Virus record (IMG/VR): IMGVR_UViG_3300032047_000189
Span: 1-20,060 of that record
Strand: one strand, 5' to 3'
From: a virus
Length of the DNA stretch: 20,060 nt
In this document: piece after piece, positions 2,161 through 16,743 of the stretch
Layout: each line of letters begins with the position of its first letter
Numbering within the stretch: position 1 is the first letter of the stretch
Position numbers and translations under genes: made by a program
The notes under the pieces: model-generated
Seen by the model: the letters and a program-made list of their open reading frames with translations, nothing else
The model's database searches: none
What the model was told of the DNA's origin: nothing

Positions 2161-4974
2161 ATGGGTCTTATTACTAAATCTATACCTACTCTTTTAAGAG
2201 GGGTATCACAAGCTTCTGACACACAACAACAACCAGACCATGCTTGGATGCAAGCTAATTTTGTTAGTAGCCCTACAGAAGGATTAAAGAAAAGATCAGG
2301 AGCACAATATGTAGCGACATTACAATCTTCAACGATGGGTAATGTACATATACAAACAATTAATAGAGATGAAACTGAAAGTTATATAGCCGTTTTTGGT
2401 GATCAAACATTAGCTATCTTTAACGCTAAAACTGGAGCAGCTATTGGGTGTGAGATTCCTGATGGTACAAGTTATTTAGACACAACTATAGAAAGAGAAG
2501 AAATAAAAACTGTTAGTATTGCTGACTATACTTTTGTCCTTAATGTAAATAAAACAGTAGCAATGGCTGCTGATGTCAGTACTGGTGCAAACAATGGAGC
2601 ATTAATTTTCTTTAATCAAGTTTCAGATAAAACTTATTACACAATAACTATAAATAATACAATAGCTGTACATGATACAAGTAGCGATAATCCATTAAGC
2701 ACAAATACAGTAGCGACAGGAATAAAAGATAAATTATTAGGTCAAAACGGTAAAAGTCCTGATAGTGGAAGTGCTTTAACAGGTTTTACTATTGTCCAAA
2801 ATGGACCTATTTTATGGATAAAAAAAGACGATAACACTGATTTTGGTATTGATACACATGACACTCAAGGTAATTCACAAATAACATTAGTTAAAAACTC
2901 TATTCAAAATTTTACTGATCTTCCAATTGTTGCTCCTAATAACTTTGTTGTTGAAGTTAAGGGAAGTGATAGTACAAATTTTGATAATCATTACGTTAAA
3001 TTTGTAACCAATAACGGTGGTACTTTTGAACAAGGGCAGTGGGAAGAAACATTAAAACCAGGAATAGAATTTAAATATAATTACTCAACAATGCCTCATG
3101 TTCTGATAAGAAAATCAGATAGTCGTTTTATTTTTGCACAAGCAGATGGAAGTACTTACGCAAATTACATTCATACAGGTACATATACACAAGCAAGTAA
3201 TGTTGTAACTGTTACTTCTACTAATCATGGTTTTTCAACAGGAGATAGTTTAGATTTAAATTTCACTTCTGGTAATGCAGTTGATGGTATTAAAACAATT
3301 ACAGTTACTAATGCAAATACTTTTAATTACACAGTAAGTGATGGAAATGTTAGTACAAATGAAAATGTAATTTTTGGGAGAGCAAATACAGAAACTTTAC
3401 CTAAATGGAGTGATAGAACTGTTGGTGATTTAGATACTGCACCTAATCCTTCTTTTGTTGGTCAGAAATTAAATAACATTTTCTTCTTTAGAAATAGAAT
3501 AGGTTTTCTTGCTGATGATGATGTAGTTCTTTCAAGAGTATCAGACTTCTTTAACTTCTTTCCTGAAACAGTAACTACAATTTTAGATAGTGATCCTATT
3601 GATATAGCAGCTTCTCATACAAAAATTTCTATATTAAAACATGCAATGACAATGGGAGAAGAATTAATACTTTTCTCAGAAAAAGCACAGTTTATATTAA
3701 AAGCATCTGATGATACGTTGACACCTAAGACAGCATATATAGTTGTAGCTACAGAGTTTGATAGTAATACAAAAGCTAATCCTGTCAGTTCTGGTAATAG
3801 TGTTTATTTTTTAACACAAAAAGGAGAGCATTCAGGCGTAAGAGAATATATAAAACAATCAGGAGTTGAAGTAAAAGATGCAAGTGACATAACAATACAT
3901 GTACCTAAATATATACCTAGTAGTGTTTTTAAAATGACTACATCTAGTAGTGAAAATCTTCTTGCATTATTACCTAATAGGCAAGGTGCATTTAGTGGAA
4001 AAGTTTTTAATAATACTTCAACTCAAGAGGAACATAGTGTTTTTATAAATCGTTGGTTATATGGTGAAAACTTTAATAAGGTTTTAAATTCTTGGTTTCA
4101 AATGGATTTATATGTAAGCTATAAAATTCTTAATATAGATTTTATTGGGTCTGATTTATTTCTTGTTGCAGAAAGTGCTACTGAAACAGTTTTATTAAAA
4201 GTACCATTTGAATCTAGATATTTAGAACCTCATGCTAGAACTCATAATGATGATCTTGGTTGTGAATTTCATTTAGATTTTAAAGTAACAGAAGCAACTA
4301 CAGGTGTTTCTATTACTTACGACAGTAATACTAAACTTAGTACTTTTACTTTTCCTTATAAGTTATATGGAACACCTACAATTGTTGGAAGATTTTTAGA
4401 TAATGGATCTTCAGGTAATACAGAAGAAACAAGTACTTATGTAGATAGCAAAGGTAATACAAAGACACTACAAACAGGTGAAACAATTTCAACTTCTACT
4501 ATTGCTAGTAACGATTATGGAACTACTTCAGTAGTAACAGCAACAGGTGACTATAGAAATTCAAAAGTAATCATGGGATATATGTTTACTTCTATATATG
4601 TCTTTTCTAAACAAAAATTAATAGATGAAAAAAACAACGCTCCAATTTTAGGAGGTAGATTTCAACTGCTTAATTTTTATTTAAAGTATGAAAGAACTGC
4701 TGCTTTCGAGACATTTGTTAAACCTTCTATGGGTGAATGGAGTAATTATAAATTTAATCCAAACCTTTTAGGTGTAAATTATTCAAGAGGTTCTATAGGC
4801 TCTGGCTCTCAACCTTTAAATAGATTAAGAACACAAAAAGGAGTTTTTAAATTTCCTGTTATGTCTAAAGCAGATATGACTTATATTGATATTTTTAGCC
4901 GTTCTTTTTTACCAGCACAGTTTCTTAGTGCAGAATATGAAGCAATGTACCATTCAAGATCTAGAAGAATTTAA
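2161..4974 (+). CDS. Tail tubular protein B (T7 gp12-like nozzle protein)
   Basis: This 937-aa protein is longer than T7 gp12 (794 aa). The N-terminus has the family signature of a long Gln-rich opening (VSQASDTQQQPDHAWMQANF, residues 15-34) followed by EGLKKRSG. The middle contains a KLNNIFFFRNRIGFLADD segment and the SRVSDFFNFFPETV stretch typical of gp12 homologues, and the C-terminus ends in a basic SRSRRI. Residues about 338-405 look like an inserted beta-sandwich module (GTYTQASNVVTVTSTNHGF and following), which accounts for part of the extra length. The protein forms the distal tail nozzle and a fibre attachment site. The stop overlaps the next start by one base (TAATG). The gene is very AT-rich. 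Confidence 0.93.
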   Translation: MGLITKSIPTLLRGVSQASDTQQQPDHAWMQANFVSSPTEGLKKRSGAQYVATLQSSTMGNVHIQTINRDETESYIAVFGDQTLAIFNAKTGAAIGCEIPDGTSYLDTTIEREEIKTVSIADYTFVLNVNKTVAMAADVSTGANNGALIFFNQVSDKTYYTITINNTIAVHDTSSDNPLSTNTVATGIKDKLLGQNGKSPDSGSALTGFTIVQNGPILWIKKDDNTDFGIDTHDTQGNSQITLVKNSIQNFTDLPIVAPNNFVVEVKGSDSTNFDNHYVKFVTNNGGTFEQGQWEETLKPGIEFKYNYSTMPHVLIRKSDSRFIFAQADGSTYANYIHTGTYTQASNVVTVTSTNHGFSTGDSLDLNFTSGNAVDGIKTITVTNANTFNYTVSDGNVSTNENVIFGRANTETLPKWSDRTVGDLDTAPNPSFVGQKLNNIFFFRNRIGFLADDDVVLSRVSDFFNFFPETVTTILDSDPIDIAASHTKISILKHAMTMGEELILFSEKAQFILKASDDTLTPKTAYIVVATEFDSNTKANPVSSGNSVYFLTQKGEHSGVREYIKQSGVEVKDASDITIHVPKYIPSSVFKMTTSSSENLLALLPNRQGAFSGKVFNNTSTQEEHSVFINRWLYGENFNKVLNSWFQMDLYVSYKILNIDFIGSDLFLVAESATETVLLKVPFESRYLEPHARTHNDDLGCEFHLDFKVTEATTGVSITYDSNTKLSTFTFPYKLYGTPTIVGRFLDNGSSGNTEETSTYVDSKGNTKTLQTGETISTSTIASNDYGTTSVVTATGDYRNSKVIMGYMFTSIYVFSKQKLIDEKNNAPILGGRFQLLNFYLKYERTAAFETFVKPSMGEWSNYKFNPNLLGVNYSRGSIGSGSQPLNRLRTQKGVFKFPVMSKADMTYIDIFSRSFLPAQFLSAEYEAMYHSRSRRI

Positions 4975-5426
4975 TGGCATATCTAAGAAAATCTAATTTA
5001 TCTGACCTTACTTATGTCTGTAACCATTTAAGAATTTTAGATAAAATAGAAGCTTGGTATCAAACAGGTCAACAACCAGAAGAAGCATTAAGGCTTACTT
5101 ATTTATTTACAGAAAAGAATTTAGCTATTGCTGGTGATGAAGATCAACCAATAGGTTTATGTGGTGTCTGTAGCGATGGAACTATATGGATGGTTGGTAC
5201 AGATGAACTAACAAGTAAAAGAAGTTATAGGGTTGACCTAATTAAAAAAGGAAGGGAATGGGTAGACAGTCTATTGAAAACTTATAACGTCTTATATAAT
5301 TATGTATATGCGGAGAATACTTCTGCTATCAAATGGTTAAAGGCTTTAGGTTTTACTTTTATTAAGTTTCACCCTGAATATGGCCACCTAAAAAAACCGT
5401 TCTATGAGTTTGTGAGGATCGTCTAA
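4974..5426 (+). CDS. gp13-like internal protein with a GNAT fold
   Basis: At 150 aa, this protein lies exactly where T7 places gene 13 (138 aa), a protein needed for incorporation of internal core proteins. The sequence reads as a degenerate GNAT acetyltransferase: a PIGLCGV strand (residues 59-65), a long helix (KKGREWVDSLL, 91-101) and the classic C-terminal element NTSAIKWLKALGFTFI (115-130). The acetyl-CoA pyrophosphate loop (R/Q-x-x-G-x-G/A) is not recognisable, so acetyltransferase activity is doubtful and a structural or assembly role is more likely. It shares one base with the upstream stop and abuts the gp14-like gene. Confidence 0.8.
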   Translation: MAYLRKSNLSDLTYVCNHLRILDKIEAWYQTGQQPEEALRLTYLFTEKNLAIAGDEDQPIGLCGVCSDGTIWMVGTDELTSKRSYRVDLIKKGREWVDSLLKTYNVLYNYVYAENTSAIKWLKALGFTFIKFHPEYGHLKKPFYEFVRIV

Positions 5427-8083: not shown

Positions 8084-8089
8084 TCATGG
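8076..8089 (+). repeat. Stop-start junction repeat, copy 1 (CTAATTAATCATGG)
   Basis: This 14-nt string spans the end of the gp15-like gene and the start of the gp16-like gene. It is identical to 12551-12564 at the gp16/gp17 junction. A shorter version, CTAATCATGG, is at 2155-2164 (gp11/gp12). In all three the stop TAA is separated from ATG by TC, with no obvious Shine-Dalgarno sequence. Confidence 0.6.
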
Positions 8090-11000
8090 TAGATAAAAAT
8101 CCAATAGAGAAAACAGTTGATTTTTACAATCAAAGACAAGAAGCTGGTGATGAATATCGTCAGCAAGCCAAAGAAGCTGGTGACAAAATAAAGCAAACAA
8201 CAGCTAGTAAAGTTCTTAGAGGAGCTATTAGTGGTCCTATAAAAGCTGTTAATGAAGCAGTAGAGTTTGGTGACGATATATATGATTACTTTGCTGGAAA
8301 CCCTTACGACAATAACGATTTAATAGATATAGGAAAACTTGGTCTTGAAGTAGAAGGAGATAAAGAAGATTGGACATACACAGTTCCACAAGCAGTAACA
8401 CAGTTTTTATTGCCTATGGGTTTAGTTAGTGGTGCTACTAGAAAAGCAATAACAAATCCTTGGTCTAGAAACTTACTTGCTGGTGCAGTTACTGATGCAG
8501 TTGTTCAAGATCCATATGAAGAAAATTTATTCAATATGTTGGATAAGGTTCCTTGGTTAGCTTCTCCAGCAACAGAAATATTAAAAGCAAAAACAGAAGA
8601 AGAAATAGGAGTAGCAGAAGCAAGATTAAGACAAACTGCTGGTGGAGCTTTATTAGGGGAAACTGTTACTGGTGTAGCTCTAGGTCTAAAACAATTAAAG
8701 AAAGCACCTAAAGCAGTACAAGAAAGAATATTAAAGAGATTGATGAATGATGAGAATACAAGACTTGTTCATGCAACAAGCGACAATATTGACAACCTTG
8801 GTGATGAAGTAATTCCTGATAAACCAGTATCAGAAACACAACCTATAAAGTTAGATTTAACAACAGATACCAGAGGTAAAGGTGAGTTCTATCATGGTAC
8901 TTCTAAAGAAATTCCTGATGGAAAAGTAACTAGCGTAGAGTCTGGTGAAAACATTTCTGACGGTAATTTACTTGGTAATGGTTTTTATACAACTGATGAT
9001 TTAACAACAGCAGGTAAATATCAAAAGAAAGGAAAGAAACAAGTTTTAAAACCAGACATTCCTTTAGCTCCAGGTATTACAAGAAGACCTGATATGCCTT
9101 ATGGGTTAGACAGCAATTTGTCAAAATCAACAAATGCTACAAGTGACGAATATTCTCAGTTATTAAACCCTGGAATAGAAATTCCTTCTCCTGATCGTTT
9201 AAGAGATTTAGCAAAACAAGCAAGACAATTTCCTATAGATAATCCATATTCAGGTGGTGGAAGAACTAATGTTGATAAATTTAATAAGCTTGCAGATCGT
9301 TTAGATGAATTAGCAGTTAATCCTCCTAAAGCAAAAGAATTTAAACCAGTAGTTTATAAACTTACAGAAAAACAACCAGTTAAATTCTTTGATGCAGATA
9401 ATCAGATTTCTTGGACTGATACAAGTCCTGAAACTAAAACTATAAAAGAAGCACTTGAAGATAGAGATTATGGAGAAGCATTAGATTTTTGGGAAAAAAG
9501 TAAAACAGCTAGTTATGCAGATTTAATTAGTGAGCTTAAAGATGAAGTTGCAAGACTAGATAGACCGATATATGAAGCTACTGAAATTATTGACGACCTT
9601 AATTTTGATTTACAAAAACTAGGTTACGGTGGTTTAACCCATCAAGGAGGAGTTAGGGCAGGTAAAGGTAAACGTCTTCATAAGGTAAATATTTATTGGG
9701 ATGCTGAGAATCAGTTAAACGTAAACAAAGTAGATGTAGGTGGTGGTGGAGCAGTTCCTCCTAGAAAACCTCCTTCTGGTTCATCAGGTGCTGATGTTCC
9801 TCCTGTAGATCCAACTGATCCTAAAGTTCAAACTACCTTTAACCCTAAATTTACTGGTGGTGGTGATCCTGATGTTCAAAAACTAATTCTTGATGCTGCT
9901 GAAGAAAATAAAAGATTAGATGCTGAAGGTCTTTGGCCTCATAAAAGAACCTTTAAAGATATGGTCAATAGTGCTAATGAACTATTACCTAAAGAAGTAA
10001 TAGACCAAGCACGTTTATTTAATGCCAGATATGGAAGAGGTGGAGAAGATGATTTACCTGCAACTCTAATTGCAATAAATCGATTGATGAATAAAAACGC
10101 TACTGCTTTATATAATGTGGCTAAGTCTTGGGATATAGCTTTTTCTGCTGGTAATAAAGAAAGTTTTGCTCAATTAAAAGAAGAATTAATTAGAGAGACA
10201 AAAATACTTGATGGTCTGATTACTCTTAACAAACCACTTAAAACAGTACCTGCTCAAACACTTGCAGCTAATAAAGCTGGTGGTGGTATTGCTAAAACAG
10301 CAGCAACAGTAGAAGACCTTGCATCAAGAACACCAGCAGAAAAAGCTATTGACCAAGCTGTTGATGTCAGAGGTGTAGTAGTTGATGATTCAAAACTAAT
10401 TGAACAAACAGGTTTTTCCTTACAAGAGATTCTTGATCTTGCTGAAAAAGGTGATAAAGCAGCAATGAAGAAACTAAGAGCTATCACCAAGAGATTGCAA
10501 GCTGCTTCTGGTAATCCTGAAGCCTTAAGAAGAATGGCTCAAGAAGGACCAATTATTAAAGGTCTAAGAATAAGTAATGAAATATTTATCAACTCAATTC
10601 TTTCTGGTCCTGAAACTCATGCAGTCAACATTCTTTCTACTGCACTAAATACAATTGCAAGACCAATTGAACAAGTAGCTGGAGCAGCAGTTACTGGTAA
10701 TACTCAAGGAATGATGAGAGGTGCAAAAGAACTTATTTATCTGACTCAATCAATAAGTGATTCATTAAAGATGGCTAAAGCTGCTTTCAGAATTGAAGAT
10801 AATATTATTAACCCTGGAGCAATGATTCAAGATGCTTCTAGGTTTAATGTTCGTATGGATGGAGAAGGAATATTAGCAACTATGATCAATTGGTTTGGAA
10901 CAATACAAAGATTACCTTCTCGCTTCTTATTAGCTGAAGATGAGTTTTTTAAAAGTATGAACTTTAGAGCTTATGTCAAAGCAAGTGCTTGGGAAAATGG

Positions 11001-12558
11001 AGTTAATAAAGGATTAGATGGCAAACAATTAAAGACTTATATTCAAGATCAATTTGATAAGACTATTGGAATTGTGAATGAAGGAAGTATGAAAAATACT
11101 AAGAGTATTGAAATAGCTGAGTTGTATGAAAAGGCACAACAATATGCAGCAGAAACTACTTTTACAGCTGATTTGCCAGCTGGTTCTTTTGGTAAGAAAT
11201 TACAAGGTGTAGCTAGTCATCCAGCAGGAAGAGTTGTTTTTCCCTTTGTAAGAACACCATTAAATATTTTTAAAGCTCAAGTAAGAAGAACACCTGGAGT
11301 TAATTTAATTCTTCAAGAATATAGACAAGCTTTAAAAAGTACTGATCCATCTGTAGCAGCAAGAGCTAGAGGAGAAATGGTTATAGGTGGTGCAGTATGG
11401 AGTGTTGCTGCTGTTACTGCTTATGCAATTAATGATGATTTTTCTGAATTAGCAATTACTGGTGGTGGTCCTTCTGATTACACTCTTTTAAATCAAAAGA
11501 AAGCTACAGGTTGGCAACCTTATAGTTTTAGATTTTTAGTAAAAGGCAAAGATGGTCAACCTGTTATTGGACAAGACGGTAAACCAAAATATAAATATGT
11601 AAGTTTTAAACGTTTAGATCCTTGGTCTTCTTTCTTAATGATGGCTGCTGATGCTACTGCTATTACAGGTCAATTAAATCAACAAGATAGAAATGATTTT
11701 GGTGTTGCTGCTTCTGTTGCTTTAGGAAGAAATATTACTAATAAAACTTATTTGCAAGGTATTACTGAATTATCAGATTTATTACAAAAGCCACATAAGT
11801 TAGAAAGCTGGGTAGCAAGAAGAGCAGCTGCAACAGTTAATCCATTTAGTTCTTTAGGTAGGTCTGGTTCTAAATATGTTGACTCAACAATTATGGATAA
11901 GAGGGTTAGATCAGGTGATGAAGGAATAGTTTTACTTAGAAAATTCCATAATGAATTCGCCGCTACTATTCCTGGTTATGGAGCAGGTATGAAACCTATT
12001 CAAAACTTTATTACTGGTTCTCTTGTTGAATATCCACCTGGTTATGGTCCAGACATAATGAATATTATGAATCCAATAAAAGAAACAGACAGTGTTAATA
12101 ATTTAGTGTTGACAACATTAGATGATATTCAGGCAAAAATAGCACCACCAAAAGATGAATTGTTTGGAGGTGTAAAACTAGATCGTGACCAATATTCTGA
12201 TTTAGTAAATGAAATTGCTTTTACAAAAATAGGTGGAGTAAGAATGGTACATGCTCTCAATAAGACTATAAAACGTAAAGATGTTCAAGCTCTTTTAGCT
12301 ACAGCTAGAGGAGAAAATATTGATACTACTAATCAAGACACATCTGTAGCTGCTCAAGAAGAAGCTAGAAAACAAGCTGAAGACATATTCCGTCAAATTA
12401 TTAATGCTTATAAAAAGCAAGGTAGGGAACAATGGATAAGAAAACCAGAAAATCGTGAGCTTGCATTAAAATACGATGAAGAACTTAATGCTATAAATGA
12501 AGCAAGAAACAACTCAGTACTAGAAAACTTTAAACAACTCCAAGGTTTCTCTAATTAA
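8086..12558 (+). CDS. Large internal virion protein D (gp16-like) with an ADP-ribosyltransferase-like domain
   Basis: This 1490-aa protein is longer than T7 gp16 (1318 aa) and is the largest ejected protein. The N-terminus (1-190) is helical and resembles marine podovirus gp16 homologues. Residues about 266-548 look like an ART domain of the polyvalent-protein type: FYHGT (His270), GNGFYTTDD (Tyr301), AGKY (Tyr312), a VVYKLTEKQPVKFFDAD strand pair, LGYGGL (512-517) and a closing HKVNIYWDAENQLNVNK strand. A Gly/Pro-rich linker follows. The C-terminal half carries the conserved gp16 core (INWFGTIQRLPSRFLLAEDE, then FVRTPLNIFKAQVRRTPG), which is membrane-channel related. The T7-type N-terminal transglycosylase is absent. 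The ART assignment is inference from motifs. Confidence 0.9.
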   Translation: MVDKNPIEKTVDFYNQRQEAGDEYRQQAKEAGDKIKQTTASKVLRGAISGPIKAVNEAVEFGDDIYDYFAGNPYDNNDLIDIGKLGLEVEGDKEDWTYTVPQAVTQFLLPMGLVSGATRKAITNPWSRNLLAGAVTDAVVQDPYEENLFNMLDKVPWLASPATEILKAKTEEEIGVAEARLRQTAGGALLGETVTGVALGLKQLKKAPKAVQERILKRLMNDENTRLVHATSDNIDNLGDEVIPDKPVSETQPIKLDLTTDTRGKGEFYHGTSKEIPDGKVTSVESGENISDGNLLGNGFYTTDDLTTAGKYQKKGKKQVLKPDIPLAPGITRRPDMPYGLDSNLSKSTNATSDEYSQLLNPGIEIPSPDRLRDLAKQARQFPIDNPYSGGGRTNVDKFNKLADRLDELAVNPPKAKEFKPVVYKLTEKQPVKFFDADNQISWTDTSPETKTIKEALEDRDYGEALDFWEKSKTASYADLISELKDEVARLDRPIYEATEIIDDLNFDLQKLGYGGLTHQGGVRAGKGKRLHKVNIYWDAENQLNVNKVDVGGGGAVPPRKPPSGSSGADVPPVDPTDPKVQTTFNPKFTGGGDPDVQKLILDAAEENKRLDAEGLWPHKRTFKDMVNSANELLPKEVIDQARLFNARYGRGGEDDLPATLIAINRLMNKNATALYNVAKSWDIAFSAGNKESFAQLKEELIRETKILDGLITLNKPLKTVPAQTLAANKAGGGIAKTAATVEDLASRTPAEKAIDQAVDVRGVVVDDSKLIEQTGFSLQEILDLAEKGDKAAMKKLRAITKRLQAASGNPEALRRMAQEGPIIKGLRISNEIFINSILSGPETHAVNILSTALNTIARPIEQVAGAAVTGNTQGMMRGAKELIYLTQSISDSLKMAKAAFRIEDNIINPGAMIQDASRFNVRMDGEGILATMINWFGTIQRLPSRFLLAEDEFFKSMNFRAYVKASAWENGVNKGLDGKQLKTYIQDQFDKTIGIVNEGSMKNTKSIEIAELYEKAQQYAAETTFTADLPAGSFGKKLQGVASHPAGRVVFPFVRTPLNIFKAQVRRTPGVNLILQEYRQALKSTDPSVAARARGEMVIGGAVWSVAAVTAYAINDDFSELAITGGGPSDYTLLNQKKATGWQPYSFRFLVKGKDGQPVIGQDGKPKYKYVSFKRLDPWSSFLMMAADATAITGQLNQQDRNDFGVAASVALGRNITNKTYLQGITELSDLLQKPHKLESWVARRAAATVNPFSSLGRSGSKYVDSTIMDKRVRSGDEGIVLLRKFHNEFAATIPGYGAGMKPIQNFITGSLVEYPPGYGPDIMNIMNPIKETDSVNNLVLTTLDDIQAKIAPPKDELFGGVKLDRDQYSDLVNEIAFTKIGGVRMVHALNKTIKRKDVQALLATARGENIDTTNQDTSVAAQEEARKQAEDIFRQIINAYKKQGREQWIRKPENRELALKYDEELNAINEARNNSVLENFKQLQGFSN
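8881..9732 (+). other. Putative ADP-ribosyltransferase-fold domain inside the gp16-like gene
   Basis: Codons for residues 266-549. The motif series is Y-H-G-T (269-272), G-F-Y-T-T-D-D (299-305), A-x-x-Y (309-312), then L-G-Y-G-G-L (512-517), with a final strand-turn-strand. This follows the order of ART/PARP-like domains found in phage polyvalent and head proteins. The usual acidic third-motif residue is not evident, so activity cannot be asserted. Confidence 0.55.
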
Positions 12559-15843: not shown

Positions 15844-16743
15844 ATGAGCCCTATTCAACAAATGTTCTTAGGTGCGGGGGCTGTTGCAGAAGCTGATCCA
15901 GGTCAACAAGTTTTATCTGTTGGTGCTGGAAATTGGACTGTTCCCGCTGGTGTATTTTCTATTTCTGTTGTTGCAGTAGGTGGAGGCGGTTACGGCGGTG
16001 AGTATTTAGGAGGTGGAGGTGGAGCCCTTGCATATAGGAATAATGTATCGGTAACACCAGGACAAACTTGTGCTTATACCGTAGGCAGAGGGGGAAATAG
16101 TACTAGCGGTCAAACTAACGGGGTAACTTCAACAATGACATTTAACGCAGGTACAGGTTCTCAAGTAGTTGTTACTGCAGATAATGGTGATGGTTATGGA
16201 AATGTAACTGATCTTAGTGGCTCAGGTTATGGAGACGGAAACATAGACGGCGATGTTCATGCTGGTGGTACGTTTATTTCTAATACTCATGGAGACGGTG
16301 GAGGCTCAGGGGGTAATTCCGATGTCTCAGGAGGCTATGACGGCGGTAACGGAAGAATGACAGGTGCAGGAGGCGCAGGGGGATATTCAGGTAACGGGGG
16401 TGACGGTGGCGAAACCGATAGTATGTTTGAGTACGATACTGGTAATGCTGGTTCTGGCGGCGGGGGCGGCGGGGGTGGCTCAGGTTGGGATATTGGAGGT
16501 GACGGGGGTGGAGTTGGGATTTTAGGAAGTGGATCAAACGGATCTGGCGGCTCAGGTGGATCTCTCGGAGTTAATGGCAGCAATGGTAGCCCTGGTTCAG
16601 GGGGATCAGGTCGAACTTATGGCGGTGGCGGTCGTGCGGGTGAATCAGCAAGTGATCGTAATGACGGCGGGGCTGGTTCAATTAGAATTATGTGGCCAGG
16701 TAATGCAAGACAATTTCCTTCTACTCGTACAGCAGATGAGTAA
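15844..16743 (+). CDS. Glycine-rich adhesin-like / receptor-binding protein
   Basis: This 299-aa protein has three parts. Residues 1-90 form a glycine-rich beta domain: MFLGAGAV, then NWTVPAGVFSISVVAVGGGG, then GGGGALAYRNNVSVTPGQ. Residues about 125-280 are extremely rich in Gly and Ser (GGGGGGGGSG, GSGGSGGSLG), suggesting a polyglycine-II type sandwich as in S16/T4-like gp38 adhesins. The short C-terminus, SIRIMWPGNARQFPSTRTADE minus its last residue or two, is a recurrent end in marine phage glycine-rich proteins, as I recall. Local GC is high because of GGC/GGG/GGT codons. It sits 40 nt behind the fibre and most likely acts as a tip or receptor-binding accessory. No clear Shine-Dalgarno sequence precedes it. 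Minus-strand Pro-rich frames across it are artefacts. Confidence 0.82.
   Translation: MSPIQQMFLGAGAVAEADPGQQVLSVGAGNWTVPAGVFSISVVAVGGGGYGGEYLGGGGGALAYRNNVSVTPGQTCAYTVGRGGNSTSGQTNGVTSTMTFNAGTGSQVVVTADNGDGYGNVTDLSGSGYGDGNIDGDVHAGGTFISNTHGDGGGSGGNSDVSGGYDGGNGRMTGAGGAGGYSGNGGDGGETDSMFEYDTGNAGSGGGGGGGGSGWDIGGDGGGVGILGSGSNGSGGSGGSLGVNGSNGSPGSGGSGRTYGGGGRAGESASDRNDGGAGSIRIMWPGNARQFPSTRTADE

What the first reader, a model, noticed from the sequence alone, without database searches (positions are those of the whole stretch)
8881..9732. ADP-ribosyltransferase-like domain in an ejected virion protein
Residues 266-549 of the gp16-like protein show Y-H-G-T, G-F-Y-T-T-D-D, A-x-x-Y and L-G-Y-G-G-L in ART order with a closing beta-hairpin. 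T7 gp16 has no such domain. gp16 enters the cell with the DNA, so this would be a delivered effector, comparable in concept to T4 Alt, that could modify a host target in the first minutes of infection. The acidic catalytic residue is not clear.
Basis: partly seen in the sequence, partly recalled or inferred. Interest (0 to 1): 0.72.

Follow-up and report, generated by a model that had tools for sequence, protein, structure and literature searches.

The report
Swappable ADP-ribosyltransferase domain in phage ejection protein
A marine virus of bacteria carries, inside the protein it ejects into its host together with its DNA, a domain with the fold of NAD-using protein-modifying enzymes; close relatives gain, lose or exchange this domain like an interchangeable payload, which suggests a weapon used in the first minutes of infection, although its chemistry is untested and this copy lacks the usual acidic catalytic residue.

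Summary
Window 8881-9732 is residues 266-549 of a 1490-aa T7-gp16-like ejection protein, and the motifs named are there in order (0 of 20,000 shuffles). The ART reading is supported for the fold, not shown for activity. AlphaFold of a close relative's domain (pLDDT 92.8, 63-row alignment) matches ART structures: best the pre-ejectosome of cyanophage A4 (Z 12.8), then tankyrase, diphtheria toxin, Arr. In 87 related domains His270 and Tyr301 are invariant. The third position is Gln in 75, Asp or Glu in 2, Lys in the window, with an invariant His beside it. The domain is an exchangeable cassette: 31 homologues lack it, presence or absence changes at least 12 times on the backbone tree, the window's nearest backbone neighbour has a different, Glu-bearing ART in the same slot, and ART domains are more alike than the proteins around them (dS 0.11 versus 0.77). 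Likely a virion-delivered ADP-ribosyltransferase payload of a new H-Y-Q subfamily near DUF3990/ART-PolyVal. Activity, target and cell compartment are inferred. Virion-packaged ARTs were already predicted (polyvalent proteins, T4 Alt), so this is a new variant of a known kind.

The parts
8086..12558 (+). T7-gp16-like internal virion (ejection) protein, 1490 aa
   Evidence: C-terminal part matches phrog_6651 internal virion protein, E 3e-51; lies between an SLT-domain internal protein and the tail fibre
8821..9831 (+). Variable slot (residues 246-582) between shared flanks DEVIPD and TTFNPKF; empty (short linker only) in 31 close homologues
   Evidence: alignment of homologues, DNA of ART+/ART- pairs, backbone tree
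8854..9753 (+). ADP-ribosyltransferase-fold domain, residues 257-556
   Evidence: 87-member family, AF2 model of the 48%-identical L054 domain pLDDT 92.8, fold matches
8893..8895 (+). His270, first ART motif residue (YHG), invariant 87/87
   Evidence: codon
8986..8988 (+). Tyr301, second ART motif residue (GFYTT), invariant 87/87
   Evidence: codon
9055..9342 (+). About 96-aa helical insert present only in the long form of the domain
   Evidence: alignment A1; helices in the first AF2 model, mostly pLDDT 55-80
9679..9681 (+). His532 on the strand that carries the third catalytic position, invariant 87/87
9682..9684 (+). Lys533, most likely third catalytic position (Gln in 75, Lys 6, Thr 3, Ser 1, Asp 1, Glu 1 of 87 domains)
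9754..9831 (+). Proline-rich linker (VPPRKPPSGSSGADVPP...) that joins the cassette to the gp16 core
   Evidence: sequence; shared by cassettes of L006, L010, L054
5975..8083 (+). Neighbouring internal virion protein with C-terminal lytic transglycosylase (SLT) domain, the activity that T7 keeps on gp16 itself
   Evidence: PF18896 7.9e-14 at residues 594-686

Best explanation
Residues 257-556 form an ADP-ribosyltransferase-fold payload domain of a previously unnamed subfamily (H-Y-Q type, near DUF3990 and ART-PolyVal), inserted as an exchangeable cassette between the N-terminal region and the core of a gp16-like ejection protein. Packaged in the virion core and ejected with the DNA, it most likely uses host NAD+ to modify a host (or immunity) molecule in the first minutes of infection. 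Shown: fold by homology model, conserved H and Y, cassette behaviour, purifying selection. Inferred: ejection (from T7 gp16), access to NAD+, catalysis, target. The window copy has Lys where most relatives have Gln, so its own activity is less certain than that of the family.
For: AF2 on the L054 domain (48% identical) gives pLDDT 92.8, pTM 0.88. PDB matches: 9k3a_B cyanophage A4 pre-ejectosome, Foldseek E 2.6e-5, Z 12.8 over 177 residues, then tankyrase 2 Z 8.0, diphtheria toxin 7.6, cholix, ExoA, Arr about 7; RES and ParT ART toxins rank high in Foldseek. BFVD returns proteins named ART-PolyVal-like, E down to 5.7e-7. Profile links: DUF3990 in 39 of 63 members, best 8.8e-7; ART-PolyVal best 2.1e-4; hhalign to canonical ART-PolyVal E 1.6e-6 over the H..Y half; PARP16 is the only natural ART hit by sequence in the PDB, E 0.23, aligned on H and Y. 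H270, Y301 and H532 invariant in 87 domains. Cassette: 31 homologues without it, at least 12 changes on the backbone tree; nearest neighbour L006 has a canonical-type ART with Glu in the same slot; dS 0.11 in the ART versus 0.77 in the core for window/L069. ART dN/dS 0.16-0.42. A 3028-aa polyvalent protein carries this ART, a canonical ART-PolyVal (60 bits) and LPD22.
Against: No Glu or Asp at the catalytic position in almost all members; Lys in the window. The fold model is of a relative, not of the window domain, whose own model failed (pLDDT 54). No library matches the domain above its curated threshold. In T7 the N-terminal part of gp16 stays in the NAD-poor periplasm (PMC8954989), so the compartment of this domain is not known. 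No biochemical data.
Confidence: 0.62

Rival explanations
1. Pseudo-enzyme or sensor: an ART fold that binds NAD+, ADP-ribose or a cyclic ADP-ribose immune signal but transfers nothing, for example a delivered sponge against NAD-based defence.
For: Third catalytic position is Gln, Lys, Thr or Ser in 85 of 87 members; Lys arose several times while the domain stayed under purifying selection (L001/L008 dN/dS 0.16).
Against: H and Y, which position NAD+ in ARTs, are invariant; the DUF3990 member seen here has the same Gln, and H-Y-[EDQ] is a recognised active-site profile (PMC9503650); L249 has Glu and L240 Asp at the same column.
Confidence: 0.25
2. Structural or regulatory module of the DNA-translocation machine with no host target.
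For: It lies inside an ejection protein; the solved relative is part of an ordered pre-ejectosome.
Against: Homologues with nearly the same backbone exist without it and the slot is exchanged faster than its surroundings; the same domain also occurs at the C terminus of proteins without a recognised gp16 core (L086, L092).
Confidence: 0.08
3. Chance resemblance; the fold is not an ART.
For: Window-only Pfam score is below threshold.
Against: High-confidence fold match, 87-member conservation and motif statistics.
Confidence: 0.03

Closest known systems
ART-PolyVal (PF18760), ARTs of polyvalent proteins (Iyer et al. 2017, PMC5512222)
   Same: ART fold, H in strand 1 and Y in strand 2, large virion-borne multidomain proteins, predicted delivery with the DNA; co-occurs with this ART in L094
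   Different: Score below the family cut-off; third residue Gln/Lys, not Glu/Asp; extra conserved HQGG...GKRLHQV loop and helical region; carrier is a T7-type gp16, not an N4 vRNAP or conjugation protein
DUF3990 (PF13151)
   Same: Best profile match over most of the domain (L054 residues 18-158 on profile 3-118, 27.9 bits); a Gln at the end strand (NQYVF) in the member seen here
   Different: Below the 32.2-bit cut-off; the member seen here is a stand-alone 165-aa protein
ART-like domain of the cyanophage A4 (Anabaena phage A-4L) ejection protein ORF27, PDB 9k3a
   Same: Best fold match, Z 12.8; YHGT and GSGTYFS motifs near residue 1425; also in an internal protein of a podovirus ejection machine
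   Different: 20% identity, located near the C terminus of a 1717-aa protein, end strand DTTLVINP without Glu; whether its authors named it an ART could not be read here
T4 Alt
   Same: Concept: ART packaged in the head and injected
   Different: R-S-E clade and separate protein; no sequence relation found here
T7 gp16
   Same: C-terminal core, gene order
   Different: No ART; its transglycosylase sits on gp16, here on the preceding protein

Membership tests
ADP-ribosyltransferase superfamily (H-Y-[EDQ] clade) | ART split-sheet fold | tested here: met
   AF2 model of the 48%-identical L054 domain; PDB and BFVD matches are ARTs. The model of the window sequence itself failed
ADP-ribosyltransferase superfamily (H-Y-[EDQ] clade) | His in strand 1 and Tyr in strand 2 | tested here: met
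   H270 and Y301 invariant in 87 domains, on model strands E18-22 and E45-48
ADP-ribosyltransferase superfamily (H-Y-[EDQ] clade) | Glu, Asp or Gln as third residue | tested here: not met
   Window has Lys533 (or Val534 in a register shifted by one); the family has Gln/Asp/Glu at 533 in 77 of 87
ADP-ribosyltransferase superfamily (H-Y-[EDQ] clade) | NAD+ binding and transfer | not testable with these tools
   needs biochemistry
Pfam ART-PolyVal PF18760 | Score at or above the curated cut-off of 31.2 bits | tested here: not met
   17.2 bits for the window
Pfam DUF3990 PF13151 | Score at or above the curated cut-off of 32.2 bits | tested here: not met
   12.2 bits for the window, 27.9 for L054
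T7 gp16-like internal virion protein | gp16-type C-terminal core and place after the other internal proteins | tested here: met
   phrog_6651 3e-51; tblastn to internal virion protein D of marine podoviruses
T7 gp16-like internal virion protein | N-terminal lytic transglycosylase | tested here: not met
   No such Pfam match in P0001; SLT_3 is on P0002
T4 Alt/VIP2 (R-S-E) ARTs | Arg in strand 1, Ser in strand 2, Glu at the end | tested here: not met
   His and Tyr at these places
Polyvalent proteins | Several unrelated effector domains in one virion-delivered polypeptide | tested here: inconclusive
   The window protein has one recognised effector domain; a relative (L094) has LPD22 and two ARTs; delivery is inferred

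The most novel reading that the evidence does not exclude
T7-type podoviruses of marine bacteria use the gp16 ejection protein as a loading dock: a fast-exchanging slot that carries ARTs of different subfamilies, including an active ART subfamily in which the acidic catalytic residue is replaced (Gln or Lys, perhaps with the invariant neighbouring His taking part), so that each phage lineage delivers its own NAD-dependent anti-defence or takeover enzyme through the DNA channel.
Probability: 0.3. Interest if true: 0.78.

Novelty: new variant of a known kind. Interest (0 to 1): 0.56.

Why it matters
Virion-delivered ARTs were predicted mostly for contractile-tailed phages and N4-like podoviruses. 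Here a T7-type ejection protein carries one as an accessory cassette that comes and goes between near-identical proteins, which points to selection by hosts and gives natural with/without pairs. It also marks an unannotated ART subfamily with an unusual active site, whose closest solved structure lies inside a cyanophage pre-ejectosome.

Tried and rejected
First AF2 run on the window domain with 22 closely related rows gave no usable core; a deeper 63-row alignment led by L054 solved it. tblastn of the domain in 50,697 annotated phage genomes found nothing, so no isolate with this subfamily is known here. Sequence searches against the PDB gave only helical-design noise and weak PARP16; 9k3a was found by fold alone. 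Canonical ART-PolyVal alignment A5 was too diverse for a collection scan. Profile alignment of the C-terminal half against canonical ARTs was not reliable, so the register of the third catalytic residue (533 or 534) stays open. The idea that His532 is the third catalytic residue (H-Y-H) was considered because it is invariant; it is not preferred because Glu, Asp and Gln all occur at 533 and a DUF3990 member has Gln there. No paper naming an ART in a T7-like ejection protein was found; the A4 structure paper (Hou et al. 2025, cited in PMC12810830) is not held.

Full report
The observation. ORF 8086-12558 encodes a 1490-aa protein whose C-terminal part is the gp16-type internal virion protein (phrog_6651, E 3e-51). 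It follows a nozzle protein (PF25675) and an internal protein that ends in a lytic transglycosylase domain, and precedes a T7-type tail fibre. A pattern written for this order occurred in 0 of 20,000 shuffles. On its own the window scores only weakly with ART-PolyVal (17.2 bits, cut-off 31.2), so the case rests on relatives and structure.

The family. Four scans of viral contigs and one of genomes yielded 87 distinct domains, 66 of them under 90% identical. His270, Gly271, Gly297, Gly299, Tyr301, His532, Val534 and Ile536 are invariant in all 87. Position 533 is Gln in 75, Lys in 6 including the window, Thr in 3, Ser, Asp and Glu in one each. The window's nearest ART relative, L069, has Gln there. 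Members match DUF3990 (39 of 63, best 8.8e-7) and ART-PolyVal (best 2.1e-4), always below curated cut-offs where scores were seen; hhalign against canonical ART-PolyVal gives E 1.6e-6 over the half that holds H and Y.

The fold. The first AF2 job on the window domain failed (pLDDT 54). With 63 diverse rows and the 48%-identical L054 domain as target the model has pLDDT 92.8 and pTM 0.88. Foldseek and VIA-align place a chain of the cyanophage A4 pre-ejectosome first (E 2.6e-5, Z 12.8, 177 residues); below it come RES toxin, Arr, ParT, tankyrase, PARP1, diphtheria toxin, cholix and ExoA, all ARTs. Apart from the A4 hit, Z values are 8 or less, in the range where unrelated folds can score, but the VIA list is uniformly ART. 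BFVD returns several proteins named ART-PolyVal-like. In the A-4L genome the likely matching protein is ORF27, 1717 aa, with YHGT and GSGTYFS near residue 1425, within the aligned chain range 939-1605; Pfam names nothing there at its threshold. The closest solved relative is therefore itself part of a podovirus ejection machine.

A cassette. Homologues of the window protein share flanks on both sides of residues 246-582. On the backbone tree set, 31 lack the domain and keep only a short linker, 18 including the window carry this ART in long or short form, and L006, the nearest backbone neighbour (85% identical), carries a different ART with the usual Glu in the same place. On a tree of the core (929 columns) presence and absence change at least 12 times, 10 forced by strongly supported branches, not far from the 15.4 expected if labels were random. 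Two long-branch rows (L051, L054) are placed unsurely. In pairs with and without the domain the DNA flanking the slot is up to 96-98% identical. ART domains are closer than their carriers: dS 0.11 versus 0.77 for the window and L069, 0.05 versus 0.61 for L001 and L004. dN/dS within the ART is 0.16-0.42, so the domain is maintained, in the pair L001/L008 (L008 has Lys at 533) too. Because two of six search peptides lay in the ART, its frequency is biased; among loci that hold a non-ART peptide 13 have this ART, 1 the canonical one and 31 none.

Other carriers. Of 66 complete proteins with this ART, 54 have a gp16-like core. The rest include C-terminal placements (L086, L092), and there is a fusion to a portal-profile region (L113) and a 3028-aa polyvalent protein with LPD22, a canonical ART-PolyVal (60 bits) and this ART (L094).

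How it probably works. T7 gp16 is ejected and is modelled to span periplasm, inner membrane and cytoplasm, with the C-terminal part in the cytoplasm (PMC8954989). By inference this protein enters the cell before or with the DNA and brings the ART along. ARTs in virion proteins are thought to modify host proteins early (PMC5512222, PMC9503650). Frequent exchange fits an arms-race payload rather than a structural part. Unknown are the compartment (the ART precedes the core, and the N-terminal part of T7 gp16 is periplasmic), the target, and whether Lys533 still permits catalysis. PARP16 is an active mono-ART with Tyr in this place (own knowledge), so lack of Glu does not settle it. The register of the third residue (533 or 534) is not settled either.

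Host. The nozzle protein is closest to that of Prochlorococcus phage P-SCSP2 (48%), so a picocyanobacterial host is likely but not shown. Verdict: ART fold confirmed by homology, activity inferred, new subfamily and new carrier of a known kind of virion-delivered effector.

Noticed in passing
window 4974-5426: A 150-aa ORF between nozzle and internal proteins looks by eye like a GNAT-type acetyltransferase; not tested.
   Followed up: no
L007 and L060 near the ART; L006 7773-8050: An additional ~100-aa domain (LTKxxLSxLTxxKxxNxLKxxFD...LPxGEY...SREKLFKRIL) sits next to the ART in several relatives, before or after it; Pfam gives nothing above threshold.
   Followed up: partly
L094 609-9692: 3028-aa polyvalent protein with LPD22, a canonical ART-PolyVal and the new ART in one chain.
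   Followed up: partly
L259 20116-25269 (-), Anabaena phage A-4L ORF27: Ejection protein of a solved pre-ejectosome appears to carry an ART-like domain that Pfam and NCBIfam do not name.
   Followed up: partly
PQ492659.1 (L133): Limnohabitans phage DC33 is filed under Inoviridae although it is 39 kb with podovirus-like large internal proteins; probably a taxonomy error.
   Followed up: no
L006 5920-11342: The gp16-like gene is split over different frames with a long additional stretch between; assembly error or real break not decided.
   Followed up: partly
window 15844-16743: Very glycine-rich 299-aa ORF after the tail fibre gene, possibly a receptor-binding or adhesin-like tip.
   Followed up: no
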